Shown here: positions 3,324 to 34,272 of the stretch, piece by piece
Layout of the letters: every line of letters starts with the position of its first letter
How positions within the stretch are numbered: position 1 is the first letter of the stretch
NCBI RefSeq assembly: GCF_003568845.1
Contig: NZ_CP030127.1
Coordinates: 62,001-126,000 of the forward strand
DNA length: 64,000 bases
Direction: 5' to 3'
Origin: Indioceanicola profundi
GTDB lineage: Bacteria; Pseudomonadota; Alphaproteobacteria; Azospirillales; Azospirillaceae
Made by a program: the position numbers and the translations under genes
The notes under the pieces: model-generated
Databases searched by the model: none
Seen by the model: the letters and a program-made list of their open reading frames with translations, nothing else
What the model was told of the DNA's origin: nothing

Positions 3324-3362
3324 GATGCACCTCGATAGCGGACGACTGGGGGCAGGAGCGGA

Positions 3363-13938: not shown

Positions 13939-14766
13939 TTAGCGGAACAGACCCAGCAGGATCTGCGGAGCCTGGTTCGCAATGCCCAGCGTCTGCGACG
14001 CGAGCTGCTGACGAGTCTGCAAGGACTGCAGATTCGCGCTCTCCTTCGCCAGATCCGCGTCCACGATGGCGCCAAGGCCGCGGGTGATGGCGTCCGACAG
14101 GTCCGTATTGAACTTCACGAGGTTGTTGACGCGACGGTCGTCAGCCGCGATGACGTTCAGGGCCTTGTCGAGAGTCTGGCTGATCGTATTGAAGCTACCA
14201 CCAGCGCTGTTGAACGAGACGAACCTGGCCGCGGCCGTGGTGCCCTTCAGGCCGGTCAGAACGGCCAGGAAGTCAGCGCCCGCCAGATTCTGTGAGCGGA
14301 TGGTAACCGTGTCAGCCTGGAGGTTGGCGATCACGGTGACATGGTCGCCAGTGAGCAGGTTCTTACCATCGAACTCCGCATCGCGGATGAACGTGGAAAT
14401 ATCGTCCACCAGCGAGTCGAACTGCTCACCATACTGAACGCGCTGGGTATCATCCAGACCGCCGCTGGCGAGGCTCGTAATGACCTTCTTGAGCTCGCGC
14501 ATCGAGGACTGGATGCTCTCGCCGGCGGCAACCGCGGTGGAAGTGACGCCGCGGCCGACAGACAGACGCTCGTTCACGGCCGAAAGGCCGCTGAGGTCGG
14601 TCCGCAGGCCCTGGGCCACCGCAAACGCAGCACCGTCGTCGAACGCGTTGGCAACGCGCAGGCCGGTCGAAACACGGTTCTGCACGGTCTGCAGGGACTC
14701 GTTGACGCGGTTAAGGCCCTGCAGGGCCACCATTGCGCCGTAGTTGGTATTGATCGAGTTGGTCAT
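13939..14766 (-). CDS. fliC: Flagellin
   Basis: The 275-residue protein has the flagellin N-terminal D0/D1 signature (NTNYGAMVALQGLNRVNESL, then NRVSTGLRVANAFDDGAAFAVAQGL) and the C-terminal part (AIVDADLAKESANLQSLQTRQQLASQTL, ending QILLGLFR). The central domain is very short, as in alphaproteobacterial flagellins. Surface D1 Ser/Thr residues are plausible glycosylation sites for the neighbouring transferases. It is transcribed alone, with a strong terminator. I found no sigma-54 consensus upstream, but an inverted repeat lies at 14824-14843. The locus could encode lateral rather than polar flagella; that cannot be told here. Confidence 0.95.
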   Translation of the reverse strand: MTNSINTNYGAMVALQGLNRVNESLQTVQNRVSTGLRVANAFDDGAAFAVAQGLRTDLSGLSAVNERLSVGRGVTSTAVAAGESIQSSMRELKKVITSLASGGLDDTQRVQYGEQFDSLVDDISTFIRDAEFDGKNLLTGDHVTVIANLQADTVTIRSQNLAGADFLAVLTGLKGTTAAARFVSFNSAGGSFNTISQTLDKALNVIAADDRRVNNLVKFNTDLSDAITRGLGAIVDADLAKESANLQSLQTRQQLASQTLGIANQAPQILLGLFR

Positions 14767-14823: not shown

Positions 14824-14843
14824 ATACCCATCCACTTGGGTAT
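14824..14843. repeat. Inverted repeat upstream of flagellin and the OGT-like gene
   Basis: ATACCCA and TGGGTAT are separated by six bases in the short divergent region between flagellin and the glycosyltransferase gene. A regulator site for flagellin is possible. A TTGGGTAT half also occurs upstream of the flaG-like gene (near 23021). Confidence 0.4.
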
Positions 14844-14892
14844 GGCAAGCGCAGATTTACCCAATCGATATGATAGATACCGGGCCAGGGAC

Positions 14893-17634
14893 ATGATGAC
14901 AGAGTCAAAGGGCAGTCTTCTGGAAAAGATCGAGCGGCTGGAAAGCGGCGGATCGTATGCAGAAGCCCTGAAAGCTCTTGAAGAGGCGGACTGGTCGGAT
15001 GATCCCGATCTTTGGCTGGCCCGGTGTAGCCTTCTGGCGTCCATGAAGTCATCCGCGACGGAGGGCGCCTATCTTGACGCCATTGCCCGCTGGCCCGGCC
15101 ATGCGGAGTTCGCGTTCAATTTTGGCAACTGGCTGCTGCGTGCGAATCGGGTGGAGGAGGCGCTGGGCCAGTATCGGGAAGCCGTGCGTCGAAGCCCCGA
15201 CCACACCAAGGCCATTCTGAATCTTGGCATGGCGGCCGCCGTGACGGAGCGCTGGGCGGATGCCGAGCCGGCATTGCAGCGCGCTGTTTCCCTGTTCCCG
15301 GACGTGCCCCAGGTGCGGCTGATGCTGGCCCGCACCCATGTCGGGCTGGGACGGCCGGAACTGGCCGCCAAGGTCTATGAGCAGTATCTCTGGAACAACC
15401 CCAACGATGCGGCGGTGCTGCTGGAGGTGGGGCAGCTTCTGCAGACCTATTCCAACTTCAGCATGGCGCTGAAGCTGATCGCGCGGGCCATTCCCCATGC
15501 CACGCCCTGGCAGCGCTCGCTCCTCCACGGTTTGATGGCGCGTCTGTACGGCGACAACGGGCAGCCGCGCCGGGCGGTGGAGAGCATCCGCGAGTCCCTG
15601 GCATTCGCGCCGGACAATGCGCAGCTTCATCTCGCATCGCTGATGATGCTGCACTACGCCATGCACGACGATCCAAGCGAGATCATGCGGGCAGTGAGGG
15701 AATTCGGGGAGCGGCATTCCGTCTACCGCCCGCGCCAGCACAAGGTGGTTCCGGATACGGAACGACGTCTGCGAGTGGGCTTGTTCTCCGGGAGCTTCCG
15801 CCGCCATCCGGTGGGTTACCTGACCCTGCGCGCCTTCGAGGCGCTGGACCCGGCCCGGTACGAGCTGGTCGGACTGGCGGCCGCCAATGATACTGACGAC
15901 TACAACAAGCGGTACCGGGCATGCTGCGCCGAATGGCACGATGTCGGAAAGCTGTCAGAGCGTGAGTTGGCCGACTTCATCGCCGACCAGCGTATCGACA
16001 TCCTGTTCGAGATGGCGGGCAGCGGGCGCGGCAGCAAGCTTCTGGCAATGGCGTACAAACCGGCGCCCGTCATTATAAAATGGGTCGGGAACCAGTACGG
16101 CTCCAGCGGGCTGCCGGAGATCGACTATTACCTGTCCGACGCCGTCGAGTCGCCGCCGGGCTATGACGAGGATTTCGCGGAAGAGCTGATTCGCATGCCG
16201 GACGGCTATGTGGTCTATGATCCGCCGGACTACGCGCCCGAAGTCGGCCCTCTGCCAGCACTGGCCAACGGCTATGTGACCTTCGGGTCCTTCAACAATG
16301 CCAACAAGCTGAATGATTTCAGCGTCGAACTCTGGGCCCGGGTGCTGCGGGAGGTGCCGCGCAGCCGACTTGTGTTGAAAAGCTACTCCTTCAACGACGC
16401 TGCCATCATCCGGGCGATGCAGGCACGCTTCGCGACCCACGGGGTGGAGCCGGGCCGACTGGAGTGCCAGCCTTTCTCCCCTCACAAGGAGTTGCTGGCG
16501 CAGTACAACAGCATCGATATCGGGCTCGACCCCCATCCCTATGCCGGGGGACTGACCACCTGCGAGTCCCTGTGGATGGGCGTTCCGGTCCTGACCCTGC
16601 CCGGCCGGACCTTCGCCAGCCGCCATTCCGCTACGCATCTGAGCAATGTCGGACTGGCGGACTGGATGACCGACAGCAGCGATGCCTTTGTCGCGAAGGC
16701 GAAGGCGTGGGCTGGCGATCTGGAGCGGCTGGCTTCCCTCCGCGCGGGGTTGCGCGATGCGGTGGCGCGTTCTCCGCTCGTCGATGCCCCGCGGTTCGCC
16801 CGCAATCTGGATCGGGCGATGCAGGACGCATGGCGGCGGTGGTGCGCCGAGCGGACCATGGATGGCACGCCGGAGGCGCCCACATGGAACCGCCAGGACC
16901 TGCTGCCTTTGTCGGCGGTTCTGGAAGCCGACGCTCCTCCGGCTCCCCTGGCGGCGCTGCAGGCTAAGGCGGATGGAATGGCGGCGGAGCCGGCTGTCGT
17001 GGCCGCTGGCGCGCGGAAATCGCGTCAGACGACCATGCCCCTGGCGACGCTGGCCGTGCTGAAGGAGGAGATCGCCGCGAGCAGGCCCAGGACCATTGTG
17101 GAATTCGGCAGCGGTCTCAGCACTGCCGTTCTGGCGGCTGCGCAGGCGGCGGCGCGGCCCGGCGAGGACGTGGTGTACATCTCCATCGAGCAGTCGGTGG
17201 ATTGGGCCGGTCAGACGCGGCAGTTGCTGAACACCGTTGGAGTCAGGCACGCGGATTTGCATGTGGTGCCGCTGGACGGCGTGTCGGTGCACCACGTCAC
17301 CTCCAGCAGCTATGGCCTGTATCCGGCCCTGGCGGCTCGTATTCTTCGCGGACGTGCGCCTGACATGATCATCGTCGACGGGCCGCAGACCGGACCCGAT
17401 AATTCTGAAAGCCGGTTCGCCACGGTCCCGCTTCTGCGCGGTCTGCTTCAACCGGGCACTGAGGTCTTCATGACCGAGGGGCTGGAACAGGCGGGCGCGC
17501 AGGCTGCTGACGAGTGGGCGCAGCTGAACTATCTGGAGGTGGCCGGCGTGCTTCCCGTCGACCGTGGGCTTGTCTATGCGCGGGCCGTGCAGCCTCGCCC
17601 GCCCCGCCGACGCGGAAAGGCAGCCGGGTCGTGA
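14893..17634 (+). CDS. TPR protein with OGT-type glycosyltransferase and C-terminal methyltransferase-like domain
   Basis: From ATG 14893 the protein is 913 residues (ATG 14842 and TTG 14836 are in frame; no start has a convincing ribosome site). About residues 15-250 are TPR repeats (for example HAEFAFNFGNWLLRANRVEEA). About 270-610 match the family-41 O-GlcNAc transferase C-terminal fold: YVTFGSFNNANKLNDFSVELW, then IDIGLDPHPYAGGLTTCESL and GVPVLTLPGRTFASRHSATH, the latter holding UDP-sugar contacts. From about 690 a Rossmann-like domain (TIVEFGSGLSTAVLAAAQ, DMIIVDGPQTG) resembles methyltransferases. Placed divergently from flagellin, it is a strong candidate for flagellin O-glycosylation. 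The three-part fusion is unusual. Confidence 0.88.
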   Translation: MMTESKGSLLEKIERLESGGSYAEALKALEEADWSDDPDLWLARCSLLASMKSSATEGAYLDAIARWPGHAEFAFNFGNWLLRANRVEEALGQYREAVRRSPDHTKAILNLGMAAAVTERWADAEPALQRAVSLFPDVPQVRLMLARTHVGLGRPELAAKVYEQYLWNNPNDAAVLLEVGQLLQTYSNFSMALKLIARAIPHATPWQRSLLHGLMARLYGDNGQPRRAVESIRESLAFAPDNAQLHLASLMMLHYAMHDDPSEIMRAVREFGERHSVYRPRQHKVVPDTERRLRVGLFSGSFRRHPVGYLTLRAFEALDPARYELVGLAAANDTDDYNKRYRACCAEWHDVGKLSERELADFIADQRIDILFEMAGSGRGSKLLAMAYKPAPVIIKWVGNQYGSSGLPEIDYYLSDAVESPPGYDEDFAEELIRMPDGYVVYDPPDYAPEVGPLPALANGYVTFGSFNNANKLNDFSVELWARVLREVPRSRLVLKSYSFNDAAIIRAMQARFATHGVEPGRLECQPFSPHKELLAQYNSIDIGLDPHPYAGGLTTCESLWMGVPVLTLPGRTFASRHSATHLSNVGLADWMTDSSDAFVAKAKAWAGDLERLASLRAGLRDAVARSPLVDAPRFARNLDRAMQDAWRRWCAERTMDGTPEAPTWNRQDLLPLSAVLEADAPPAPLAALQAKADGMAAEPAVVAAGARKSRQTTMPLATLAVLKEEIAASRPRTIVEFGSGLSTAVLAAAQAAARPGEDVVYISIEQSVDWAGQTRQLLNTVGVRHADLHVVPLDGVSVHHVTSSSYGLYPALAARILRGRAPDMIIVDGPQTGPDNSESRFATVPLLRGLLQPGTEVFMTEGLEQAGAQAADEWAQLNYLEVAGVLPVDRGLVYARAVQPRPPRRRGKAAGS

Positions 17635-23048: not shown

Positions 23049-23444
23049 ATGAACCCTGTGGACGCCGTCTCCTCTGTGCCGCGCTATACCACCCCGACAC
23101 CGAGCCGTGTCGGGACGGACCGGGATTCCAACTCTTCCGAACCTGTCGCTCCCGCCATTTCCGTCGCCGGCTATGTCAGCCCTCGCGTCCGGTTCGATCG
23201 CGAAACCGAACTGCTGGTGATCGAAATACGCGATATCCAGAACGGCGAGGTCGAGCAGTCCTATCCGCCCAAGAGCACGGTGGAAGCCTACAAGCGGGCC
23301 GCACGGACGGGCTCGCCAGGGCTGGGAGTGCCGGCGGATATGTATCGAACCGGCGAACAGTCGGGCACGGCAGAGCCGGAAGCGCCGACTTCGACGCCTG
23401 CGCCATCCTCCACTTCCCCGCAAACGCCAAAGCAGGCGGAATAG
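23049..23444 (+). CDS. FlaG-like flagellar protein
   Basis: From ATG 23049 the product has 131 residues. The N-terminal 45 residues are Pro/Ser/Thr rich. The middle (VRFDRETELLVIEIRDIQNGEVEQSYPP) fits the FlaG fold, in which a short beta-sheet domain with a QIPP-like motif is conserved. The tail is low complexity (Pro, Ser, Thr). FlaG proteins influence filament length. The disordered tails are atypical, so the family call is moderate. Confidence 0.65.
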   Translation: MNPVDAVSSVPRYTTPTPSRVGTDRDSNSSEPVAPAISVAGYVSPRVRFDRETELLVIEIRDIQNGEVEQSYPPKSTVEAYKRAARTGSPGLGVPADMYRTGEQSGTAEPEAPTSTPAPSSTSPQTPKQAE

Positions 23445-23565
23445 CCGCTGCTCCGCATGCCGGCCTGAAGGCCGCCTGTATGGAGCGGCAACGCCTGCTT
23501 AACCATTCGTGCCGGATAGATGCTGCATCGCTCCGGCGCCAACTCCGCCGTTCGAGGGGAGCAGC

Positions 23566-25260
23566 ATGATTGACCAGGCAGACGCCGTGCAGGCCGGGTC
23601 CGACGGGTTTCAGCTGGAGCTGAAGCGGGTGGCCGCGGGCGGAGCGGTGGACATCCCCGCGCTGTTTCCCTGGCTCACGGCTCCGACGGTATCGGAGCGT
23701 GCCGCCGCGAATCGCAGGATCGGCGAAGCGCTGCTGCAATCCGGCCGTGGGCGGGATGCGACGCTTTATTACGAGCGCGCCTGGCGGCTGGAAGGCCCGC
23801 CAGTTGGGTGCGAGTTCCAGCTTCCCGACCTTCTGTTCCAGGCCAAGCGGCCGCGTGACGCTCTGGACTGCCTGCGCGAGGTGGCGTTCGACGCGGCCCG
23901 CAATGGACGCCTGGACGTCCTTAGCCGTGCGGTGGTGTTCTTTCAGCAATATTCGACCCATGGCGACAGGCCGCAGCAGGACCACATCGTGTCCCGCATG
24001 GCGGCGGAAGCCTTCCAGGCGGCGGCTGGCGATCCGCCGCCCGCAACGCCGCTCGACGGGCGCATCTTCCGGGTCGGCTATGTGCTGTATTGCGAGCAGG
24101 ACCCGAAGAGCACCTTGCCGCCGATCTATCCGAACTATGCCCGCCATCATGATCCGAAGCGGGTGGAAGCACGGTTCTATTCGTTCCTGACCCGCGAAGA
24201 GGTGCTGAAGACCAATCCGGGCTTTGAGCGGATAGAGGCGGAACTGGCGGCCAGGGGGCAGGTGCTGACCTATGTCGGAGACACATCCGGCCCCTATAGC
24301 CGGGCCGCATCGGTCGCCGCCGCCATGCGCAAAGACGGCATTGATGCGGCCCTCCTGAACTACGGGCTCTACAACAACTTCATCCTGGCCTGTCTTCGTC
24401 CAGCACCTCTGGTCGCCACGATCGATTTCGGCGATCCGCAGCAATACACAGCCATTCCCATGGATGTGAACTTTACCCGGTTCGAGCACTTCAAGATGGA
24501 GTCCATGTGCCGGGCGGAGGAGCTGGGCCTGTATTTCCCTCGCGCCGTGCCCGACCGGTCGGAAGCTTATGCGCGGGCGGAGCTCGGCTTCCCAGAGGAC
24601 CAGCCGGTCGTCATCTGCTGCGGCGCCACCTACAAATTCGCCAATCCCCGTTTCTGGGGAACGATCATCATGGCGCAGGGGATCGAGCGCAGGGGATTCT
24701 ACGTCTTCGTCGGCATCACCGAGGAGGATCTGCCCGACGGCGTGAAAGACAAGCTCGACCTGTCGCGCTGCCGGTTCCTGGGCTTCCGAACGGACTTCAG
24801 CCGCATCCTTCCGGCCGCCGACATCCTGCTGGACACCTTCCCCATGGGCGGCGGGCACACGCTGCTGGAAGCGATGGCGCACGGCATCCCTTGTGTGATG
24901 CTGGCACATGACTTCAAGCGGCTGTTCGACAAACGCTACAATTACTTCCCATACGCGACCCTGCCTTACATCAAGGACCTGACCGTACCTGCGGAACGGT
25001 TGGACCAGGTCGCCCTGACCTTGATCAACCTGATCCGCTCGCCTGACGAGCGCGCCCGCTTTGGGCAGGCCGGACGCAGCATGTATGCGGAAGCCATGGA
25101 CGGTCCGGCCTTCATGCGCCGGCTGGAAGGCATGCTGATGGGCGAATATGACGCGATCCGGCAGGCCCGTGATGCCGAGACTGGCGGAGCGGCAGCGGAT
25201 ATGCTACGAAAGAAAGGCGTGGATACCGCAAACAGTGGTAATGCCATAGCAGAAACATAG
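23566..25260 (+). CDS. SPINDLY/OGT-like glycosyltransferase
   Basis: From ATG 23566 (GAGGGGAGC site) the protein has 564 residues. The N-terminal third is helical and TPR-like (LLQSGRGRDATLYYERAWRL). The C-terminal half has GT-B features: QPVVICCGATYKFANPRFW, then CRFLGFRTDFSRILPAADILLDTFPMGGGHTLLEAMAHG, where the last segment is the nucleotide-sugar-binding EAMAHGIPCV pattern. It lies between flaG and the tailoring operon, which starts 13 bp after its stop, so the glycosyltransferase may be co-transcribed with that operon. Flagellin or surface glycan modification is inferred. Confidence 0.82.
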   Translation: MIDQADAVQAGSDGFQLELKRVAAGGAVDIPALFPWLTAPTVSERAAANRRIGEALLQSGRGRDATLYYERAWRLEGPPVGCEFQLPDLLFQAKRPRDALDCLREVAFDAARNGRLDVLSRAVVFFQQYSTHGDRPQQDHIVSRMAAEAFQAAAGDPPPATPLDGRIFRVGYVLYCEQDPKSTLPPIYPNYARHHDPKRVEARFYSFLTREEVLKTNPGFERIEAELAARGQVLTYVGDTSGPYSRAASVAAAMRKDGIDAALLNYGLYNNFILACLRPAPLVATIDFGDPQQYTAIPMDVNFTRFEHFKMESMCRAEELGLYFPRAVPDRSEAYARAELGFPEDQPVVICCGATYKFANPRFWGTIIMAQGIERRGFYVFVGITEEDLPDGVKDKLDLSRCRFLGFRTDFSRILPAADILLDTFPMGGGHTLLEAMAHGIPCVMLAHDFKRLFDKRYNYFPYATLPYIKDLTVPAERLDQVALTLINLIRSPDERARFGQAGRSMYAEAMDGPAFMRRLEGMLMGEYDAIRQARDAETGGAAADMLRKKGVDTANSGNAIAET

Positions 25261-25273
25261 ACGAGTGTACGCC

Positions 25274-26062
25274 ATGCGAACCAAAATGGTTTCTGAGGCG
25301 TCGCAGATGGGTCTATCTGTCCCGGCCCTTGCGGACGCGGTTCCTACCGAACTCTGGCTCGATGCTCTCGAGGCGGAGGCGCTTGCCCACCCGGCCTCAA
25401 ACCATCGGCTGCTCCGCCGGATCGCCGCGGGCGATTTCGCCGATATGCCGGAGGTACTGCGCACCATCGCGCTGCAGTACGGCCAGTACAGTCGGCACTT
25501 CATCAGCTATGTCGAGGGCGTGATCGCACAGCTCTCGAACCCCCGGCACGCGGACGCCCTTCGGCATAATCTGGAGGAGGAGCTGGGATTGCTGCCGGAT
25601 GGAAGCCAGGGCAAGCCGCACCGGGAAATCTATCAGGATTATCTCCATGCCATCGGCGTGGATGCCGATTACAGCCGTAGCCAGCCCCCCATTGCGGAGG
25701 GGCCGTCCTGGGCAACCGCATTCCGCAGCCTGTGCGCCGACCAGGGCGCTGCGGCGGGCATCGGGGCGCTGGGCCTGGGCACCGAATTGATCGTCGCCCA
25801 GATTTACGGCTTCTTCCTCACGGCTCTGGAGCGTCACACCTCGCTCACCGAGGAGGACCGGCTGTTCTTCAGTCTGCACGCCGTATGCGATGTGGAGCAT
25901 TCGGCGACCCTGCGCGGCATCGCCCACGATCTGGTGGAGAGCGAGCCTGCCGCTCGCAGCGAGGTCGAGCGTGGGATGCGCGCGGCATTGGCCCTGCGGG
26001 CTGAGTTCTGGACGGCGCTGGAAGGACATCTGGACCAACGCCTTGGGGCGAAGGCCGCCTGA
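25274..26062 (+). CDS. Heme-oxygenase-like diiron oxidase family protein
   Basis: The 262-residue all-helical protein carries the ligand pattern of heme-oxygenase-like diiron enzymes: E101/E102 in HNLEEELG, H116 in KPHREIY, E171 in GTELIVAQ, then H202, D206 and H209 in LHAVCDVEHS. Known members (UndA, SznF, BesC types) use O2 to break C-C bonds or oxidise nitrogen in amino-acid-like or fatty-acid substrates. It is the first gene of a five-gene operon, with the next start overlapping by one base (TGATG). GTG 25265 is an alternative start. Substrate is unknown. Confidence 0.8.
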   Translation: MRTKMVSEASQMGLSVPALADAVPTELWLDALEAEALAHPASNHRLLRRIAAGDFADMPEVLRTIALQYGQYSRHFISYVEGVIAQLSNPRHADALRHNLEEELGLLPDGSQGKPHREIYQDYLHAIGVDADYSRSQPPIAEGPSWATAFRSLCADQGAAAGIGALGLGTELIVAQIYGFFLTALERHTSLTEEDRLFFSLHAVCDVEHSATLRGIAHDLVESEPAARSEVERGMRAALALRAEFWTALEGHLDQRLGAKAA

Positions 26063-26820
26063 TGTCCGAACGTTCCGCCGATCCGGCGCGGCTCTATGAT
26101 GGGAATGCGGGGCTCTGGCGTCGCACCGGCCCGAGCAGCCTGTCCGACTTTACCGGCCGTCCGCCCGTGCTGGAGCTGTGCGGCGGCGTTGCCGGGCTGG
26201 ATGTGCTGGATGTCGGTTGCGGCGAGGGGTACGTCGCGCGGGAGATCAGGCGGCGGGGTGCGGCCCGCGTCGTGGGCTTCGACCTGTCCGCCCAGATGAT
26301 CGAGCAGGCAAGAGCCACCGAGGCCGCCGAGCCGCTGGGGATATCCTATCATCATCTACCGGCGACGGAGCTGGACGGGCGTTTCGGCGCGTTCGACCTG
26401 GCCATTGCCGTCTTTGTCTTCAACTATGTCGCCATCGCCGACATGACGGAAATCATGGGGCGGGTGCGGCGGGTTCTGAAGCCCGGCGGCGCCTTCGTCT
26501 TCTCGGTCCCGCATCCGTCCCAGCACTTCGTCCATGATGGCCGCCCGCCCTTCTTCTTCGAGGGCTCCATTGGCTATTTCAGCGGCCGGGACCAGCGGCT
26601 TCCTGGGCAGATCCACTGCCGCAACGGGCGCGTGCTGCCGGTACAGTCCGTGCACAAGGTCTTCCAAGATTATTTCGACGGGCTTGCGGCGGCTGGTTTC
26701 ACCAGCATGCCTACTGTCCGTGAGCTTACGGTTCGGCCGGAGCATCTGGAGATAGACCCGGATTTCTTCGGACCGGTGAAGGATGTGCCGCTCCATGTCG
26801 CCTTCCGCGTCACTGCCTGA
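26062..26820 (+). CDS. Class I SAM-dependent methyltransferase
   Basis: The 252-residue protein has motif I LDVLDVGCGEGYVAREI (about residues 48-64), acidic loop VGFDLSAQMIEQA, and post-motif VLKPGGAFVFSVPHPSQHF. This is the methyltransferase-11/UbiE-like fold. It is coupled to the diiron gene upstream and overlaps the ATP-grasp gene downstream. Small-molecule O- or N-methylation is the usual role of such enzymes, and the substrate is unknown. Confidence 0.88.
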   Translation: MSERSADPARLYDGNAGLWRRTGPSSLSDFTGRPPVLELCGGVAGLDVLDVGCGEGYVAREIRRRGAARVVGFDLSAQMIEQARATEAAEPLGISYHHLPATELDGRFGAFDLAIAVFVFNYVAIADMTEIMGRVRRVLKPGGAFVFSVPHPSQHFVHDGRPPFFFEGSIGYFSGRDQRLPGQIHCRNGRVLPVQSVHKVFQDYFDGLAAAGFTSMPTVRELTVRPEHLEIDPDFFGPVKDVPLHVAFRVTA

Positions 26821-28141
26821 AACCGGCGGTTCCACTGCCGTCATCCTGCGCAGCAACGACATCTGTCATCTTGGTATCGTCCGGGCCCTGAAGGCAGCCG
26901 GTGTCCGCACGGTCGCGGCGGTGTTCGACTATCCCGGAGCGCCCGATTGGCTGTCGGACGCCACCGCGGCGGCTGACCGGACCGTACGCATACCTAATCC
27001 CGGCGCGGATGAGGCCGGGGCCGTTGCCGCGCTGGAGCAATTGGGGATTGAGGAGGGTGCGGACGGTCGCCGGCCCATGCTGTGGGCGTCTTCCGATACC
27101 GGGCTGGTCCTGTTCGGCCGCAACGAGGAGCGGCTTGGAAAGCGGTTCCGGTTCCTGGGCGAAGAGCCCGATGGAAGGGTGCCCTGGCGAACCCTGGACA
27201 AGGGCCGTACCGCCGCCATCCTGGACGCTGCCGGGGTCGGCCAGCCGCTGACCCTTGCCTGTTCGACGTCTGGTGAGATACCGGCGGTCGCGGCCGCCAT
27301 GCGCTATCCATGTGTCTACAAGCCCGCCGTGAAGGACCTGACCCAGAGCTTCTACCGGGGCCATGGCGGGTTGAAGGCGGTCACATGTGCCGATGCCCGC
27401 GAATTGAGTGAGCGGTTGCCGGCTGAAATCGCGGCGGGCCACCGGCTGGTTGTGCAGGAGCTGGTGGAATATGAGGGCGTGGAAGCCGAGGTGCCGTTCT
27501 ACGCCTATGTGGACCGCTGCCACCGCATCCGCATGGCCCTGACCGCCTGCAAAGAGCGGGTGGAACCGCCGGGCTTCGGCACCGCCACGGTGCTGCGCAT
27601 CACATGGCATCCAGAGCTGCTGGAGGCGGCGCAGACCATCGCGACGGCCCTGGCCTGGCACGGCCCGCTGATGATCGAGTTCACGCGCGATATGCGCACC
27701 GGTGCGTGGCAGGTGATCGAGATCAATGGCAGACCCTGGCTTCTGAACGACTTCTACCGTCGAGCCGGCTTCGACTTCGTCGGCATGATCTATCGGGAGC
27801 ATGAATTGCCAGATGGCCTGATGGTCCCCTCCCCTGCCCTTCTGGCGCGCCGCCCGGTCATGGTGGACATGCCGGCAGAGCTTGCGGCCATGCGCCGGCA
27901 TGGGGAGGCGGTTGATCAGCCCGTAATGGACCGCAGGCTCGCCGGGATCGGCGGTGATATCTATTTCAGCTACGACGACCCGGACGATCCCGGTCCGGGA
28001 CGGGCCTGCCGACAGGCTATAAAGCAGCGGTACGGCGTGATCTATCCGCCCTCGTTTGACGATATGGGCGTCGCCGCGGACGCAGGCGGAAATAACAATC
28101 AACCCGGTTTGGATCAGCCCTTGCGGCGGGAGATGGTGTGA
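26795..28141 (+). CDS. ATP-grasp ligase
   Basis: From ATG 26795 the product is 448 residues (ATG 26783 is also in frame). The N-terminal domain (STAVILRSNDICHLGIVRAL) and central lid (YPCVYKPAVKDL, VVQELVEYEG) are followed by the metal-binding segment MIEFTRDMRTGAWQVIEINGRPW, typical of ATP-grasp carboxylate-amine or carboxylate-thiol ligases. Such enzymes join a carboxylate to an amine through an acyl-phosphate. The gene sits in the middle of the operon, overlapping the methyltransferase by 26 bp and the oxygenase by one base. It suggests that the pathway makes an amide or peptide bond. Confidence 0.87.
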   Translation: MSPSASLPETGGSTAVILRSNDICHLGIVRALKAAGVRTVAAVFDYPGAPDWLSDATAAADRTVRIPNPGADEAGAVAALEQLGIEEGADGRRPMLWASSDTGLVLFGRNEERLGKRFRFLGEEPDGRVPWRTLDKGRTAAILDAAGVGQPLTLACSTSGEIPAVAAAMRYPCVYKPAVKDLTQSFYRGHGGLKAVTCADARELSERLPAEIAAGHRLVVQELVEYEGVEAEVPFYAYVDRCHRIRMALTACKERVEPPGFGTATVLRITWHPELLEAAQTIATALAWHGPLMIEFTRDMRTGAWQVIEINGRPWLLNDFYRRAGFDFVGMIYREHELPDGLMVPSPALLARRPVMVDMPAELAAMRRHGEAVDQPVMDRRLAGIGGDIYFSYDDPDDPGPGRACRQAIKQRYGVIYPPSFDDMGVAADAGGNNNQPGLDQPLRREMV

Positions 28142-28980
28142 TGACGGTCGATACGGCGGCGCTGTTGGACGGGGCCACGCTGAGGGTCTCCGGCCTTGCG
28201 GCACTGGACCCGGCAGAGGTGCGCCGGATCATGGTCAAATACAGCTTCTGCCGCATCCGCGGCCTGTTCGGTGCCGCGGAAATCCGCGCCGGGCTGGAAA
28301 GCCTGCGCCGGGGCTTCGACCCGTCCTTGGACAACCCTGTTATCGGGGAAGCGCCAGGCGCTGTGATGAAGAATTTCCAGAAGCTGGCCATCGGTGGGAC
28401 GATGCAGAGCTGGGCGTACCGGCCGCGCTTCATCCGCATCCTCTACAATCCCCTGTGGGAGGCGGATATCTACGGGTTGCACGGGCTTTTCCGCAAGCTG
28501 GCGGCATTGCGGAACCGGCTGCAAGGCCATCCCGAGGGCTATGCCATCGACACCGTCGACGGCGGCATGTGGACGGCGGCCCGGGTGCAACATTACCCGG
28601 CGGGCGGCGGCTTCCTGATCCCCCATCGTGACACTGTGATCAGCAAGGTGAACAGCGATGCGGGGATCGAGCAGTTCTACCAGATACTCCTCCCCCTGAC
28701 CCAGAAAGGCGTGGATTTCGAGCGTGGCGGCGGCTTCGTCGAGCTGGAGGATGGCGAGGGTCAGCGTGTCTACATCGAGGACAATATCGAGGCCGGGGAT
28801 GTGGTCATGTATGACGGCCGCACCGTTCACGGCGTCGCCGACATCGACCCCCATAAACGCGTGAATTTGCAGACAATGGACGGGCGGGTCGTCATGTTCG
28901 CCTCCCTCTACAAGGATATGTCGGGAGACAGCCGGCTTTATGCCGAGTACGACCATATGGAACGGGAGGCGAAGGCATGA
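28141..28980 (+). CDS. Fe(II)/2-oxoglutarate-dependent oxygenase
   Basis: The ATG at 28141 overlaps the ATP-grasp stop (TGATG); a GTG at 28138 is possible. The 279-residue protein has the double-stranded beta-helix iron triad H162 and D164 (in LIPHRDTV) with H230 (in DGRTVHGV), and R240 (in PHKRVN) as the likely 2-oxoglutarate-binding residue. These enzymes hydroxylate or otherwise oxidise unactivated carbons. It is coupled to the TylF-like gene by an ATGA overlap. The substrate is unknown. Confidence 0.85.
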   Translation: MTVDTAALLDGATLRVSGLAALDPAEVRRIMVKYSFCRIRGLFGAAEIRAGLESLRRGFDPSLDNPVIGEAPGAVMKNFQKLAIGGTMQSWAYRPRFIRILYNPLWEADIYGLHGLFRKLAALRNRLQGHPEGYAIDTVDGGMWTAARVQHYPAGGGFLIPHRDTVISKVNSDAGIEQFYQILLPLTQKGVDFERGGGFVELEDGEGQRVYIEDNIEAGDVVMYDGRTVHGVADIDPHKRVNLQTMDGRVVMFASLYKDMSGDSRLYAEYDHMEREAKA

Positions 28981-29762
28981 GCGCCGGCGATCAGAAGCCC
29001 AGCGGCGGCGTGGCCGCGCGTGTGGACACCCGAAGCGACGATTACCGCTCAGCCGAGCGCGAGCTTTACGGCATGTTGGACAGCATCTCGCTTCCCCGTG
29101 AGGAGATTTGCGAGAACCTGATGCTGTTCACGACCCCACAGCAGCTTCGCCGTCAGCTTTTCCTGTACGAAATTTATAAGAAAATCCTGGATGTGCCGGG
29201 CAGTATCATGCAGTTCGGCGTCCGCTGGGGGCGGGAGCTTGCCCTGTTCGAGGCGCTGCGCACCACATTCGAGCCATTCAATCACAGCCGCAGGGTCACT
29301 GGCTTCGACACGTTCGAGGGCTATGTGGGGCTGGATGCGAAGGACGGCCCGTCGCAGCAGATGAAGGCCGGCAATCTGGCCACCACGGCTGGCTATGACG
29401 CAGAGCTGGAACAACTGCTCCGCACTCGTGAGGCACTGAGTCCCATTCCCCACGTCAAAAAGTTCGATCTGGTGAAGGGAGACGTGGAGCAGACCCTGCC
29501 GGCCTATCTGGCGGAAAATCCGCATACTGTAGTGGCACTGGCCCATCTGGACCTGAATCTCTACCGCCCCACCCGCTTCGCACTGGAAACAATCCGGCCC
29601 CATCTCACCAAGGGCAGCATTGTCATCGTGGATGAGGTCAATCTGAAGACCATTCCAGGAGAGACGCGGGCGCTGATGGAGGTCTTCGGCCTCAACAACA
29701 TCCGTCTCCGCCGCGACCCGATGGTCGGCCCGACCTGGCCGGCCTACTTCGTGATCGAGTAA
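28977..29762 (+). CDS. TylF/MycF-like methyltransferase
   Basis: The 261-residue protein has the TylF-type pattern: LRRQLFLYEIYKKILDVPG, then IMQFGVRWGRELALFEALR (motif I region), VTGFDTFEGY (the FDTFEGF-like acidic loop), and HLDLNLYRPTRFALETI with VDEVN metal-binding aspartate/glutamate. TylF and MycF methylate sugar hydroxyls of macrolides, and relatives occur in surface-glycan loci. Here it ends the operon, which would fit methylation of a sugar unit. Some homologues are annotated with misleading carnitine-related names. The aminotransferase gene lies convergent 26 bp away. Confidence 0.83.
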   Translation: MSAGDQKPSGGVAARVDTRSDDYRSAERELYGMLDSISLPREEICENLMLFTTPQQLRRQLFLYEIYKKILDVPGSIMQFGVRWGRELALFEALRTTFEPFNHSRRVTGFDTFEGYVGLDAKDGPSQQMKAGNLATTAGYDAELEQLLRTREALSPIPHVKKFDLVKGDVEQTLPAYLAENPHTVVALAHLDLNLYRPTRFALETIRPHLTKGSIVIVDEVNLKTIPGETRALMEVFGLNNIRLRRDPMVGPTWPAYFVIE

Positions 29763-29790
29763 CCGGCACAGCCGGCCGGAAACGGTTTTT
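29762..29790 (+). terminator. Weak terminator after the tailoring operon
   Basis: A short CCGGC/GCCGG stem and a GGAAACGG loop are followed by five T residues at 29786-29790, overlapping the convergent aminotransferase stop. Confidence 0.4.
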
Positions 29791-30943
29791 ACGCCAGGGC
29801 TTTCATGGCCGCATCCAGCACACGCTGGATATCCACGCCGGGCCACATTGGCAGGCGGATCAGGCAGTTCTCGGCATGGCGGGTCACGGGGCAATCGCCA
29901 TTTGCCCGCCCCAGCCTTCTGCCGGCCGGCGTATCGTGCAGGGCGACATAATGGCGGAACACCTTGATCCGTGCCTCCGCCATTGACGCGGTGAACCGAT
30001 CGGCCCTATCCATGTCGGTGAAGCGTAAGAAGAAGATATGGCCGTTGTGGCCAATTCCGGGACCCAGTTGCGGAAGCTCAAACCGGCCGGAGCCGGATAG
30101 CGGCGCAAGCTCACGCATATAGGTGTCCCAAAGGTCGCGGCGTGCTGCGGTTACACGCTCGACATCCTCCAACTGCACGGACAACATGCCGGCCTGAAGC
30201 TCGCTCGGCAGGAAGGAGGAGCCGAGGTCGATCCAGGTGTACTTATCGATCTCTCCTCGCACCCAGCGCTTTCGGTTCGTGCCCTTCTCCCATAGCACCT
30301 CTGCCCGCTCCACCAGTTCCGGGTCGTTGATGATCAGCGCGCCGCCCTCCCCGCAGTGGATGTTCTTGGTGGCATGGAAGGAAACGGCCGCGAGATCGCC
30401 GAAGGTGCCAAGAGGTCGGCCATAGAAGTCTGCCCCGATGCTCTGGGCGGCATCCTCGATCAGTCTCAAGCCATGGGCGCCGGCGATCGCCTTCAGCTCG
30501 TCTATCGCGCAGGGGGCGCCAGCATAGTGTACGACGCAGATGGCCTTAGTCCTGGGCGTGATTGCCGCCTCCACCTGCACCGGATCAATGGTCATGTCCT
30601 CCGGCCGGGCATCCGCAAAGACCGGTACGGCTCCTCGAAGTGCGAACGCGGAGGCGCTGCTGACGAAAGTGAAGGAAGGTACGATCACCTCGTCGCCTGG
30701 ACGAAGATCCAGCAGCAGGGCCGACATCTCCAGTGCCGCTGTACAAGAAAGAGTCAGGAGAACCGGCGCATCATTGTGCATGCGGCTGAGCATGTCCTGA
30801 CACCGCCGCGTGGCAGTTCCGCCGCCATGCATCGTGCCGGTCAGGACCTCGGCAAGTGCCGCAGGCTCCCGCCCAGTCAGATAGGGTCGGTGGAACTCAA
30901 CAGCGTCGGAAAGGCTGCCGACGGTGCGGCTGTCCGGGATCAT
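29789..30943 (-). CDS. WecE-type sugar aminotransferase (DegT/DnrJ/EryC1 family)
   Basis: The 384-residue PLP enzyme has GDEVIVPSFTFVSSASAFALRG, the LIEDAAQSIGADFYGRPLG region, and SFHATKNIHCGEGGALI with the PLP lysine. The segment EKGTNRKRWVRGEIDKYTW, followed by GSSFLPSELQAG, is the mark of the dTDP-4-amino-4,6-dideoxygalactose aminotransferase (WecE/RffA) branch. Product is therefore likely an amino-dideoxy sugar nucleotide. It is convergent to the tailoring operon rather than part of it. It would supply an amino sugar for a glycan, which fits the flagellar glycosylation island. No other sugar-nucleotide genes are in view. Confidence 0.9.
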   Translation of the reverse strand: MIPDSRTVGSLSDAVEFHRPYLTGREPAALAEVLTGTMHGGGTATRRCQDMLSRMHNDAPVLLTLSCTAALEMSALLLDLRPGDEVIVPSFTFVSSASAFALRGAVPVFADARPEDMTIDPVQVEAAITPRTKAICVVHYAGAPCAIDELKAIAGAHGLRLIEDAAQSIGADFYGRPLGTFGDLAAVSFHATKNIHCGEGGALIINDPELVERAEVLWEKGTNRKRWVRGEIDKYTWIDLGSSFLPSELQAGMLSVQLEDVERVTAARRDLWDTYMRELAPLSGSGRFELPQLGPGIGHNGHIFFLRFTDMDRADRFTASMAEARIKVFRHYVALHDTPAGRRLGRANGDCPVTRHAENCLIRLPMWPGVDIQRVLDAAMKALA

Positions 30944-31467: not shown

Positions 31468-31622
31468 CGCTAGTGCGCTGGTCCGCGGGTATCCGGCCCT
31501 AGCTTGATGGAGACGAGCAGTTTCTGCAGATGCCCAATCTAAGCCGGGTAGGATGTTGCGTCCTGCCCGGCGCCTGTCTTGTCACAGGAAGCTTTGAGTC
31601 CTGGTGCGGCGAGGCCGTGCAG

Positions 31623-32327
31623 ATGGCCAGCAACTACGCTAGGCTAGAGTTCGGTTTGAACAATCTCCTGCCAATATCCTGCATGCCGCCCAGAAAGTTC
31701 CCGCCCGACATGGTGTCCAGTTCAGATGGCTCGGCGGCCGTTCCGAAACGGCACCGTCGGCGCGATAATCCCGCACAGTTCGACCTGTTCGAGATGCCGG
31801 AGGCAACGGCTGTCATGCTGACCTTCTCTGGGCGGACGGTCGACCTTGAAAACCCTGATCTCTCCGCGTTTGACATCACGGACATAGCGCGCCCTCTTGC
31901 GTACCAGTGTCGTTTCGTGGGCAATACCATTGCCTTTTATAGCGTGGCACAGCATTCAGTGCTCGCAAGCTACTTGGCACCCAAGGGATTCGAATACGAT
32001 GCCTTGATGCATGATGCCGAGGAAGCGTTCACAGGCGATTGGCCGACGCCCTGGAAGGTGCGGATTGGCAGGGCAGCGATTGAGGAAGCTGTCGCTCCAT
32101 TGAAGCGCGAGATCGCCGAACGGTTCGGAACTCGCTATCCCCAACCCAAGGAAGTCAAGCTGGCGGACCAGCGTGCGCTGGCAACGGAGCTACGGGATCT
32201 CTGCGCACCCCATCGGGTAAACTGGAAGGACCTGCCCAGTCCGGCAGTAGAGCCGATCCAAGCGCTTGCGCCGGAGGATGCGCTTCGATCCTTTCTTCAG
32301 CGCTATCGCGAGCTGCGCAAAAGCTGA
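31623..32327 (+). CDS. HD-domain phosphohydrolase (YfbR-like)
   Basis: The open frame extends to 31530, but the start is uncertain: ATG 31623 has a GAGG site eight bases upstream, while 31683 and 31710 have none; the 31623 form is 234 residues. The conserved region begins at LTFSGRTVDLENPDL and includes IARPLAYQCRFVG, FYSVAQHSVLAS with a metal-binding His, and LMHDAEEAFTGDWPTPWK with the HD pair. YfbR-like enzymes dephosphorylate nucleotides. Copies are frequent on alphaproteobacterial plasmids, and this one lies just upstream of parA with a parS-like site after its stop. Confidence 0.78.
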   Translation: MASNYARLEFGLNNLLPISCMPPRKFPPDMVSSSDGSAAVPKRHRRRDNPAQFDLFEMPEATAVMLTFSGRTVDLENPDLSAFDITDIARPLAYQCRFVGNTIAFYSVAQHSVLASYLAPKGFEYDALMHDAEEAFTGDWPTPWKVRIGRAAIEEAVAPLKREIAERFGTRYPQPKEVKLADQRALATELRDLCAPHRVNWKDLPSPAVEPIQALAPEDALRSFLQRYRELRKS

Positions 32328-32329
32328 CT

Positions 32330-32343
32330 ATCCGACGTCGGAT
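32330..32343. promoter_or_regulatory. parS-like site 2
   Basis: ATCCGACGTCGGAT is a perfect 14-bp palindrome immediately after the HD hydrolase gene and about 100 bp upstream of parA. Confidence 0.82.
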
Positions 32344-32387
32344 GCAGTCTGAATGCACGGCGGCAACTGGTTCCAGAGCGCAGGCAT

Positions 32388-32419
32388 CTGGTTGACGAAC
32401 GCCGTCAACCAGCTATAAA
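32388..32419 (+). promoter_or_regulatory. parAB promoter with overlapping operator palindrome
   Basis: A perfect 10-bp inverted repeat (CTGGTTGACG, five bases, CGTCAACCAG; 32388-32412) covers a -35 box TTGACG (32392-32397). The -10 TATAAA lies at 32414-32419 with a 16-bp spacer. The N-terminal HTH of ParA is the natural candidate to bind here and repress its own operon. Confidence 0.72.
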
Positions 32420-32442
32420 TTGCGCCTGGGGGGGCATCACCG

Positions 32443-33396
32443 ATGATTGGACAGGAACTACGTACCTTCCGGGAAGAACGGCTGAAGCTCAGTCAATCGG
32501 ACTTCGCGGCATGGCTCAATGCACGGCTGTCGCGCCGTTATGACAAGGCCCGGATCAGCCGGTGGGAGTCCGGACGGGAGCCTATTCCAGAACCCGTATC
32601 CCGTCACCTGAAGGAGAGGCGCATGGGCGTCACGATCGCAATCGCCAACCAGAAGGGTGGCGTCGGAAAAACCACAACAGCTGTCAACCTGGCTTCGGCT
32701 TTGGCGGAAATCGGCCGCAAAGTCTTGGTCGTGGACGCCGATCCCCAGGCGAGTGCAACGGCCGCCGTTGGGCTGGACGCCTTCGAGTATGAGCAGCGTC
32801 AGGCGACGCTCTACCATGTGCTCTTTGGCAAGGTGGACGTCTCCCAGGCGCTGATCCAGATCGAGTCCGCGCGCTTTGACCTTCTTCCATCCGGCATTTC
32901 GCTGGCGGAAGGTGAGATGCGTATCCGCAATGAGGCGGGGGGTGAACTGGTGCTCCGCGAAGCTCTCCAGCCGCTGCACGACGTCTATGATTTCATTCTG
33001 ATCGACACTCCCCCGAATCTCGGCCCCATGACGGCGAACGGCCTTGCCGCCGCGCACAAGGTGCTGATCCCGGTCAAGACGGCGTTCCTGGACATGCTTG
33101 GAATTCCGCTGCTGCTGGAAACTGTTGGGAAGCTTCAGCGCAGGCTCAATCCCAGCCTGACAGTCGTCGGTATCCTTCCCACGCTTCACGACCCGCGTCT
33201 CAGCGTGAACCGGCAGGTTCTGGAGGAGCTGCATGAGCGGCTTGGTGCGCGGACGCGGATTTTCCCGCCAGTCCACCGCGCCACCGGATTCGACCAAGCT
33301 TCCTATAATGGCGAGGTGGCGCTGAAAGTGCTGCCGACGGATCATCCCGTGAATTCGTACCGCACTGTGGCTAAGGAGCTGGCCAATGAAGCTTAA
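32443..33396 (+). CDS. parA: ParA partition ATPase with N-terminal HTH
   Basis: The 317-residue protein starts with an XRE-like helix-turn-helix region (about residues 3-58: [20 protein letters not shown] ... [12 protein letters not shown]) followed by a complete ParA ATPase: deviant Walker A KGGVGKTT (71-78), VDADPQAS, and [11 protein letters not shown]-bearing ParA proteins of plasmid type Ia both move DNA and repress their own operon. The gene overlaps parB by 11 bp. An internal ATG at 32623 (residue 61) has a strong AAGGAG site 6 bases upstream, so a short ParA without the HTH may also be made. Confidence 0.94.
32611..32625 (+). promoter_or_regulatory. Internal ribosome site and start within parA
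   Basis: AAGGAG at 32611-32616 lies six bases before an in-frame ATG at 32623, exactly at the junction between the HTH and ATPase domains. Confidence 0.5.
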
Positions 33397-34243: not shown

Positions 34244-34248
34244 TCCGC

Positions 34249-34266
34249 CTATCCGACGTCGGATAG
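34249..34266. promoter_or_regulatory. parS-like site 4
   Basis: CTATCCGACGTCGGATAG is a perfect 18-bp palindrome in the 29-bp space between the convergent parB and RHE_PE00001-type genes. It is the best match of the four. Confidence 0.85.
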
Positions 34267-34272
34267 CCTGCG

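What the first reader, a model, noticed from the sequence alone, without database searches (positions are those of the whole stretch)
25274..30943. Uncharacterised tailoring operon in the flagellar island
Five genes overlap by 1 to 26 bases: diiron heme-oxygenase-like enzyme, methyltransferase, ATP-grasp ligase, Fe(II)/2OG oxygenase and TylF-like methyltransferase. A WecE-type aminotransferase converges on them and an OGT-like transferase precedes them by 13 bp. The set could make an acylated, methylated amino sugar for flagellin, or a separate small molecule. I recognise no described pathway with this combination.
Basis: partly seen in the sequence, partly recalled or inferred. Interest (0 to 1): 0.88.

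Follow-up and report, generated by a model that had tools for sequence, protein, structure and literature searches.

The report
Oxidised amino-acid cap for surface sugars
Four unusual enzymes beside flagellar genes in a relative of Azospirillum also occur together in an ocean bacterium whose searched genome showed no flagellin, each time near sugar-making genes, and probably build an oxidised amino-acid cap that is fixed to an amino sugar on the flagellum or cell surface.

Summary
The five-gene operon is real: HDO diiron oxidase, methyltransferase, ATP-grasp, Fe(II)/2OG oxygenase and TylF methyltransferase. It follows flgK-flgL-ORF-glycosyltransferase on one strand, with a WecE aminotransferase converging. 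Four of the five genes form a portable core: all four (34-41% identity) lie within 6.5 kb in one single-cell SAR11 (Pelagibacteraceae) genome, in a polysaccharide-type island that also holds a WecE (46%). No flagellin was found in that genome. Strong matches are rare: 2OG in 1 of 82 genomes of the window's order, MT in 1 of 367 of the SAR11 order. GT, TylF and WecE relatives occur without the core in Azospirillaceae glycan islands. TylF (44%), WecE (45%) and other ATP-grasp proteins also lie in a flagellin-glycosylation island of Acetoanaerobium. Best reading: the core makes an oxidised, methylated amino acid (or similar acid) and the ATP-grasp couples it to the WecE-made amino sugar; the acceptor is perhaps flagellin here, a surface glycan in SAR11. 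Precedents: C. difficile type B and Shewanella flagellin modification, and HDO plus ATP-grasp clusters such as mangotoxin. I found no described HDO in a glycan locus. Substrate, product and acceptor are inferred.

The parts
23509..25260 (+). Glycosyltransferase with a Glyco_trans_1_4 domain (ATG alternative at 23566); candidate transferase of the capped sugar
   Evidence: scanned as 23524-25260 (28.4 bits, cut-off 27); two relatives above 100 bits lie in glycan-type islands of the same family
25274..26062 (+). HDO: haem-oxygenase-like diiron oxidase (alternative start GTG 25265); proposed ligands E106, H119, E174, H205, D209, H212 in the numbering from 25265
   Evidence: PF14518 87.3 bits; aligned with BesC and CADD sequences; SAR11 homologue 33.6% over 232 aa
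26062..26820 (+). Class I SAM methyltransferase of the core
   Evidence: Methyltransf_25 82 bits; SAR11 homologue 41% over 249 aa
26795..28141 (+). ATP-grasp carboxylate-amine ligase of the core (alternative start 26783, used for residue numbers)
   Evidence: K140, K180-P181, Q225-E226, D303, N315, R317 invariant in 7 sequences; 3 of 6 relatives scanned pass an ATP-grasp cut-off; SAR11 homologue 34% over 338 aa
28138..28980 (+). Fe(II)/2-oxoglutarate-type oxygenase of the core (ATG alternative at 28141)
   Evidence: H163-x-D165...H231...R250 in a 7-sequence alignment; relative L008 passes PF13640; SAR11 homologue 38% over 263 aa
28977..29762 (+). TylF-family methyltransferase; sugar layer
   Evidence: PF05711 26.8 bits; relatives 44-46% in two Azospirillum glycan clusters and the Acetoanaerobium flagellin island
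29789..30943 (-). WecE-type sugar 4-aminotransferase, convergent; sugar layer
   Evidence: NF008687 466.2 bits, cut-off 375; SAR11 homologue 45.6% over 364 aa
20364..21902 (+). FlgK, start of the co-directional run
   Evidence: FlgK_D1 123.1 bits
21921..22958 (+). FlgL (flagellin-type N and C domains)
23049..23444 (+). 131-aa ORF (from ATG 23049) between flgL and the glycosyltransferase; a FlaG-like place only
   Evidence: ORF; no Pfam or NCBIfam hit for 23055-23444
13939..14766 (-). Flagellin (275 aa), possible acceptor
   Evidence: Flagellin_N 92.8 bits at G000:C2:76347-76754; flagellin models below their cut-offs
14836..17634 (+). TPR plus GT41 (OGT-type) glycosyltransferase beside flagellin
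   Evidence: Glyco_transf_41 129.1 bits

Best explanation
A glycan-tailoring locus in two layers. Sugar layer: RmlA and RmlB (elsewhere on the same contig) supply dTDP-4-keto-6-deoxyglucose; WecE aminates it to a 4-amino-4,6-dideoxyhexose; TylF O-methylates a sugar hydroxyl; the glycosyltransferase transfers the sugar. Acyl layer (HDO, MT, ATP-grasp, 2OG): the two iron oxygenases and the methyltransferase convert an amino acid or similar carboxylic acid into an oxidised, methylated building block, and the ATP-grasp ligase activates its carboxylate and joins it as an amide to the sugar's amine. The capped sugar goes onto flagellin in this genome and onto a surface polysaccharide in SAR11. Shown here: gene order, family membership, catalytic residues, recurrence of the four-gene core with a WecE in a second lineage, and presence of genes for the sugar precursor. 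Inferred: the substrate, the order of steps, the amide to the sugar, and flagellin as acceptor. My estimates: glycan tailoring about 0.75; amino-acid-type acyl cap given glycan about 0.65; flagellin as the acceptor here about 0.5. The confidence below covers the glycan and acyl-cap part.
For: Core shared with SAR11 AG-404-P01: HDO 33.6%, MT 41%, ATP-grasp 34%, 2OG 38% identity, contig 31609-38084. A WecE homologue of 45.6% lies on the same contig at 18640-19785, about 12 kb away, with exporter-, epimerase- and RmlABCD-like genes around (by eye). Both WecEs pass NF008687 (466.2 and 608.6, cut-off 375). Own genome: RmlA 408.5 (cut-off 360.65) and an intact RmlB 464.8 (cut-off 365.1). Remote ATP-grasp relatives lie in polysaccharide-type islands in 4 of 5 neighbourhoods, those of the five best non-own genome hits of 26. 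A Priestia relative lies between a GT4 and a kinase, with a PIG-L deacetylase before the GT4. Azospirillum L096: DegT-TylF-GT in a row. Azospirillaceae G036: GT (28%) divergent from a WecE relative (49.6%) without HDO, ATP-grasp or 2OG. Acetoanaerobium L095: flagellin, NeuB, TylF 44%, WecE 45%, FlaG and two ATP-grasp proteins. Papers: the C. difficile ATP-grasp CDR20291_0245 is needed for the peptidylamido sugar (PMC5207246, passages); the cap is taurine, alanine and glycine on a glycan that ends in Fuc3N (PMC5207245, abstract); Shewanella SfmE, an ATP-grasp protein, in a flagellin-modification operon (PMC3765264, passages).
Against: No substrate or product is known. The core was found in two genomes only, so its link with WecE rests on n=2, and WecE-type genes are common in glycan islands. 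The window's ATP-grasp has no BLAST relative in the Acetoanaerobium island: the ATP-grasp proteins there are another subfamily. One of five remote ATP-grasp neighbourhoods (L092) is not a glycan island, nor, as far as I can see, are those of Azospirillum brasilense (L054) and Halorussus (L057). HDO relatives on plasmids lie in other settings, e.g. L098 with carrier proteins and ketosynthases. The own contig also holds a polysaccharide-type island at 30-55 kb, so flagellin need not be the acceptor. No promoter or terminator signal above chance marks the unit.
Confidence: 0.5

Rival explanations
1. A freestanding small-molecule cluster, like the mangotoxin type: the ATP-grasp makes a dipeptide or amide, HDO and 2OG oxidise it, MT and TylF methylate it, and the product is released. 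Its place beside flagellar and sugar genes is incidental.
For: HDOs near ATP-grasp ligases are a known natural-product pattern: 1447 HDO sequences, at least 25 BGCs (PMC13185094, first of six parts and passages). Characterised HDOs act mainly on fatty or amino acids (PMC13108848, first of six parts). An MFS-type transporter lies 5 kb beyond WecE (36308-37576).
Against: In both genomes the core sits among glycan genes with a WecE. No exporter and no NRPS/PKS domain was hit among the seven genes 23509-30943. Only one ATP-grasp ligase and no recognised mboB- or mboE-like gene.
Confidence: 0.2
2. Glycan tailoring as in the best explanation, but the acceptor in this genome is LPS/EPS, not flagellin; the operon lies downstream of flgKL by chance of island arrangement.
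For: A polysaccharide-type island with RmlA, RmlB and, by eye, Gmd- and GmhA-like genes lies at C2 30-55 kb, upstream of the window. In SAR11 the core lies in such an island and no flagellin was found. GT and TylF relatives lie in non-flagellar glycan islands.
Against: The operon is co-directional with flgK-flgL: gaps of 18, 90, 64 and 13 bases with starts 21921, 23049, 23509 and 25274 (121 before GT if it starts at 23566). A GT41 protein lies beside flagellin. TylF, WecE and ATP-grasp genes occur in the Acetoanaerobium flagellin island.
Confidence: 0.25
3. No common pathway: HDO, MT, ATP-grasp and 2OG serve different ends and were brought together by island shuffling.
For: The gene order differs between the two genomes: one run in the window, two facing runs in SAR11.
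Against: All four recur within 6.5 kb of a 1.1-Mb genome, while strong matches to 2OG, ATP-grasp and MT are rare in the samples (HDO was not sampled this way). MT and ATP-grasp genes overlap in both genomes.
Confidence: 0.05

Closest known systems
Clostridioides difficile type B flagellin modification locus (peptidylamido-glycan)
   Same: ATP-grasp gene with a sugar aminotransferase gene near and co-transcribed with fliC; amino-acid-like cap on a glycan that ends in an amino sugar (PMC5207245 abstract; PMC5207246 passages)
   Different: There an FdtB-like protein (3-amino sugar), a FemAB-like protein and an ornithine-cyclodeaminase-like protein; no HDO, 2OG or TylF named in the passages read. 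Here a WecE (4-amino) type plus HDO, 2OG and two methyltransferases.
Shewanella oneidensis sfmABCDE flagellin modification operon
   Same: Methyltransferase and ATP-grasp gene in one operon; deletion alters flagellin mass; the outer moiety carries extra methyl groups (PMC3765264 passages)
   Different: Probably nonulosonic-acid based (NeuB domain), with a TPP enzyme and an ACP-reductase-like protein; no HDO, 2OG or WecE named in the passages read.
Mangotoxin (mbo) cluster
   Same: HDO with ATP-grasp ligase (PMC13185094, first part and passages)
   Different: Two ATP-grasp ligases, a redox partner MboB and an arginine deiminase MboE; tripeptide product.
BesC / CADD-PabS branch of HDOs
   Same: Closest solved sequences; same six metal ligands by my reading
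   Different: Scores 27.6 (BesC) and 45.3 (CADD family) against cut-offs 500 and 200; CADD's sacrificial Tyr27 and Lys152 align with L50 and F184 here.
SAR11 AG-404-P01 island (L006, L049)
   Same: Same four-gene core and a WecE on one contig, in a polysaccharide-type island
   Different: No TylF relative by BLAST in the parts compared, no flagellin found, core split into two facing runs, next to the rRNA operon.

Membership tests
HDO (haem-oxygenase-like diiron oxidases) | PF14518 score over cut-off | tested here: met
   87.3 bits vs 28.9
HDO (haem-oxygenase-like diiron oxidases) | 3 His / 3 carboxylate ligand set | tested here: met
   H119, E174, H205, D209, H212 align with BesC and CADD residues. 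E106 aligns with BesC's Glu; for CADD the printed gap shifts this Glu, and I place it by the N-L-x-x-E motif. All six identical in the SAR11 homologue. Which CADD/BesC residues are ligands is partly recalled
CADD / pABA synthase subtype | Sacrificial Tyr27 and Lys152 of CtCADD | tested here: not met
   aligned residues are L50 and F184, by counting along the alignment; roles
BesC | NCBIfam equivalog cut-off | tested here: not met
   27.6 vs 500
3H/4C N-oxygenase subtype | Extra Glu ligand from the auxiliary helix | not tested
   no SznF-type sequence was aligned
ATP-grasp superfamily | Pfam cut-off for the window protein itself | tested here: not met
   best is ATP-grasp_5, E 0.044, 13.6 vs 27.6; SAR11 homologue 23.7 vs 24 for Dala_Dala_lig_C
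ATP-grasp superfamily | Homology to proteins over an ATP-grasp cut-off, with conserved ATP/Mg residues | tested here: met
   BLAST relatives L055 (26.9 vs 19.8), L057 (21.6 vs 19.8) and L091 (36.8 vs 29.1) pass, 3 of 6 scanned; K180, Q225-E226, D303, N315, R317 invariant in 7; residue roles recalled
Fe(II)/2OG oxygenase | HxD...H facial triad and distal Arg | tested here: met
   H163, H231, R250 in 7 of 7; D165 in 6 of 7; roles recalled
Fe(II)/2OG oxygenase | Pfam cut-off | tested here: inconclusive
   window protein no hit; 1 of the 7 aligned proteins (L008) passes PF13640, 28.4 vs 27
WecE (dTDP-4-amino-4,6-dideoxygalactose transaminase) | NCBIfam equivalog cut-off NF008687 | tested here: met
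   466.2 vs 375; SAR11 608.6
WecE (dTDP-4-amino-4,6-dideoxygalactose transaminase) | TIGR02379 (ECA_wecE) cut-off | tested here: not met
   window 413.8 vs 434.85; the SAR11 one passes with 613
TylF/MycF O-methyltransferases | PF05711 cut-off | tested here: met
   26.8 vs 23
C. difficile type B-like amino-acid-capped flagellin glycan locus | ATP-grasp gene and sugar aminotransferase gene beside flagellar genes | tested here: met
C. difficile type B-like amino-acid-capped flagellin glycan locus | FdtB-like 3-aminotransferase, FemAB-like and cyclodeaminase-like genes | tested here: not met
   no such family among the seven genes 23509-30943; the aminotransferase is WecE-type
C. difficile type B-like amino-acid-capped flagellin glycan locus | Amino-acid-type cap on flagellin glycan | not testable with these tools
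   needs mass spectrometry
Mangotoxin-type HDO/ATP-grasp cluster | HDO plus ATP-grasp ligase | tested here: met
Mangotoxin-type HDO/ATP-grasp cluster | Two ligases, MboB redox partner, arginine deiminase | tested here: not met
   no such family hit among the seven window genes; no mbo sequence was aligned

The most novel reading that the evidence does not exclude
A portable four-enzyme cassette builds a noncanonical amino acid (desaturated, cyclised or C-C cleaved by the diiron HDO, further oxidised by a 2OG enzyme, methylated) and the ATP-grasp ligase pins it on a surface amino sugar. It would be the first HDO known to decorate a glycan, shared by a flagellar locus of an Azospirillum relative and a polysaccharide island of SAR11, where it could act in phage or grazer evasion.
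Probability: 0.35. Interest if true: 0.8.

Novelty: new variant of a known kind. Interest (0 to 1): 0.58.

Why it matters
HDOs are known from free metabolites, cofactors and peptides. If this holds, diiron C-H chemistry also decorates surface glycans, and the same cassette has moved between a flagellated Azospirillum relative and SAR11, among the most abundant ocean bacteria (recalled). It gives a testable route: one cassette, two acceptors, predicted mass shifts. It also separates what is rare (the four-gene core) from what is more widespread (GT, TylF, WecE).

Tried and rejected
AlphaFold models of the 2OG (pLDDT 33.5) and ATP-grasp (37.6) from two-row alignments were too poor to use, so no fold search was run. 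Viral scans: HDO and ATP-grasp none; MT one weak hit (L046, 24% identity), not followed; 2OG one phage contig with a lone relative in the 16.7 kb held. Phage records: none for the window's 2OG or the SAR11 one. Plasmid tblastn: 2OG none; ATP-grasp 54 records, all under 60% identity, and 18 for the SAR11 one; MT 11 at E 1e-10; HDO 2 and 5 for the SAR11 one; TylF 16. Of these plasmid hits I opened 8 neighbourhoods; none holds two core genes by BLAST (L054-L057, L095-L098, the latter with window proteins only). 2OG relatives at class level: L008 lies in a prophage-like stretch, L009 beside asparagine-synthase- and HslUV-like genes, L011 beside a radical-SAM-like gene (by eye). Of 79 loci compared by tblastn, those from other genomes held at most one core gene each (most are only 3-5 kb). 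HDO was not sampled in whole genomes. PDB search with the ATP-grasp profile: nothing up to E 0.1. Promoter- and terminator-like sites are at chance (1 against 1.8 and 4 against 5.0 expected). CADD-type pABA synthesis was rejected on Tyr27/Lys152. Recent foreign origin was not supported by composition: GC 0.606-0.659 for the five genes against 0.640 for the window. Gene names given 'by eye' come from reading translations, not from a family search.
Full report
OBSERVATION. The window is G000:C2:62001-126000 of a 5.37-Mb genome in four contigs. The operon is as described: HDO (25274-26062), MT (26062-26820), ATP-grasp (26795-28141), 2OG (28138-28980), TylF (28977-29762), each overlapping the next by 1 to 26 bases. 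It continues a one-direction run: flgK (20364), flgL (21921), a 131-aa ORF (ATG 23049), a glycosyltransferase (GTG 23509 or ATG 23566), with gaps of 18, 90, 64 (or 121) and 13 (or 4) bases. WecE (29789-30943) converges. Flagellin (13939-14766, minus) and a GT41-type TPR glycosyltransferase (14836-17634) lie about 8-11 kb upstream.

WHAT THE PROTEINS ARE. HDO passes PF14518. Five of its six proposed metal ligands align plainly with BesC and CADD; the sixth, E106, aligns with BesC, and with CADD by motif only. All six are identical in the SAR11 homologue. CADD's sacrificial Tyr27 and Lys152 (PMC13108848, passages) are not kept. The ATP-grasp protein passes no Pfam cut-off itself, but 3 of 6 relatives scanned do, and K140, K180-P181, Q225-E226, D303, N315 and R317 are invariant in 7 sequences. 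The 2OG protein likewise has no Pfam hit, but H163, H231 and R250 are invariant in 7 of 7 and D165 in 6 of 7, and one of the seven passes PF13640. TylF passes PF05711. WecE passes NF008687 but not TIGR02379.

THE CORE RECURS IN SAR11. One scan of genome contigs (one genome for each of 84,980 species) with the ATP-grasp protein, which finds close relatives only, returned one locus, L006, from a single-cell Pelagibacteraceae genome, AG-404-P01. It holds all four: HDO 33.6%, MT 41%, ATP-grasp 34% and 2OG 38% identity, at contig 31609-38084. MT and ATP-grasp overlap by 4 bases there; HDO and 2OG are adjacent. The locus follows a 16S-23S-5S rRNA operon and lies among a GT2, an LPG_synthase_TM protein and a further methyltransferase, with UDP-sugar-dehydrogenase- and RmlABCD-like genes by eye. 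A WecE homologue (45.6% to the window's; 608.6 bits vs 375) lies about 12 kb away on the same contig. No TylF relative was found by BLAST among eight L006 proteins or in L049 and L050. A flagellin search of that genome found none; it is a 1.1-Mb single-cell assembly and may be incomplete.

STRONG MATCHES ARE RARE. 2OG: 1 of 82 genomes of the window's order, the window's own; with a two-row profile 5 of 385 class genomes at E 1e-3, own 534 bits, the other four at most 68. ATP-grasp profile: 27 of 398 phylum genomes at 1e-3, own 860 bits, others at most 66. MT profile: 9 of 372 class genomes at 1e-20, own 490, others at most 90. Around SAR11: 2OG 2 of 53 of the family, one strong and one of 21.5 bits; ATP-grasp 1 of 247 at 1e-10 and MT 1 of 367 at 1e-25 of the order. 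The own and G821 scores are high by construction, as both built the profiles. Samples overlap between calls. HDO was not sampled this way.

THE SUGAR LAYER IS MORE WIDESPREAD. GT: 54 of 81 family genomes at E 1e-3, but only two besides the own above 100 bits (G036 190.6, G001 119.1). Both lie in glycan-type islands with DegT-family relatives and without HDO, ATP-grasp or 2OG; each has a partial methyltransferase match (G036: 40% over 109 aa to the window's MT; G001: 29% over 103 aa to the SAR11 one). In G036 the GT is divergent from a WecE relative of 49.6%. TylF: in Azospirillum argentinense it lies between a DegT aminotransferase and a glycosyltransferase with a Glyco_trans_1_4 domain; in Azospirillum TSA2s among GDP-mannose dehydratase and glycosyltransferases. 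In class genome G287 a weak 2OG relative (26%) stands directly before a TylF relative (37%) in a glycan-type island. I therefore read GT, TylF and WecE as the sugar layer, onto which the rare core was added.

FLAGELLAR PRECEDENT IN ANOTHER PHYLUM. Acetoanaerobium noterae (Clostridia) L095 has, in one direction, flgK- and flgL-like genes, flagellin, an MptE-like protein (Maf_flag10_N just below its cut-off, 23.1 vs 23.5), NeuB, TylF (44%), WecE (45%), two ATP-grasp proteins, FlaG and a FliD-like gene (flgK, flgL and FliD by eye). Its ATP-grasp proteins have no BLAST match to the window's. Published precedents: the ATP-grasp protein CDR20291_0245 of C. difficile is needed for the terminal peptidylamido sugar of flagellin, in a locus with an FdtB-like protein (PMC5207246, passages; PMC5207245, abstract); P. 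aeruginosa PAO1 flagellin carries N,N-dimethylthreonine (PMC11833859, abstract and opening); Shewanella SfmE (PMC3765264, passages).

ATP-GRASP CONTEXT. I read the neighbourhoods of the five best non-own genome hits of 26. Four (L089, L090, L091, L093) lie in polysaccharide-type islands and one (L092) does not (by eye). A Priestia plasmid relative (27%) follows a PIG-L deacetylase and a GT4 and precedes a kinase, a setting in which an amine may be exposed on a sugar. The Azospirillum brasilense (L054) and Halorussus (L057) relatives do not lie in an obvious glycan island. This supports, but does not prove, acylation of an amino sugar.

MECHANISM. RmlA (408.5 vs 360.65) and an intact RmlB (464.8 vs 365.1) on the same contig could feed WecE. 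The core would prepare an acid and the ATP-grasp would form the amide. HDO chemistry known so far covers desaturation, C-C cleavage, N-oxygenation, nitrile, azetidine and alkyne formation, mostly on amino or fatty acids and peptides (PMC13108848 and PMC13185094, first parts). I cannot choose among these from sequence.

KNOWN OR NEW. HDO next to ATP-grasp is a recognised pattern (at least 25 clusters; PMC13185094); the supplementary figure listing them was not seen, so this cluster may be among them. Amino-acid-capped flagellin glycans are known. I found no paper joining an HDO with a glycan or flagellar locus (searches; open-licence library only; one search listed 8 of 1,259 papers, so it is weak). 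Hence 'new variant of a known kind'.

LIMITS. Two instances of the core; no product; acceptor unproved; structure models unusable; many island gene names by eye.

Noticed in passing
window 2583-4595 (minus): TfuA-like protein (PF07812, 161 bits) directly after a YcaO cyclodehydratase (PF02624, 295 bits): a TfuA-YcaO pair, of a kind linked elsewhere to peptide thioamidation (recalled).
   Followed up: no
L012:7905-8693: A tailed-phage contig with an integrase-like gene (by eye) carries a 2OG relative (35% to the window's); no other core gene matched in the 16.7 kb held.
   Followed up: partly
L051:11493-12487 (G000:C2:53484-54481): A second rmlB copy in the same genome is split between two frames; an intact copy lies at C2:37755-38756.
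   Followed up: partly
L056:5842-7842: Pantoea agglomerans 38-kb plasmid: one CDS annotated ectB whose N-terminal third matches HDO (29% over 248 aa): an apparent HDO-aminotransferase fusion.
   Followed up: no
L052 (G000:C2:618001-638000): A second flagellar locus in the same genome with two Flagellin_N matches (by eye one flagellin, one FlgL), so perhaps two filament systems; only the window's lies by the operon.
   Followed up: no
L095:2113-30304: Acetoanaerobium noterae flagellar region with a long flagellin-glycosylation island (NeuB, TylF, WecE, two ATP-grasp proteins).
   Followed up: partly
L055:4998-9192: Priestia megaterium plasmid: PIG-L deacetylase, GT4, ATP-grasp and kinase in a row near spore-coat genes. 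ATP-grasp matches in 36 Priestia records.
   Followed up: no
L091:8071-10256, L054:9001-11020, L095:23499-26119: A metallophosphoesterase-like gene (by eye) lies beside or within 1 kb of the ATP-grasp gene in three unrelated loci; the window operon lacks it.
   Followed up: no
window 32443-34243 (plus): ParA- and ParB-like proteins (by eye) close after the WecE gene; may mark the replication/partition region of the 1.18-Mb contig.
   Followed up: no
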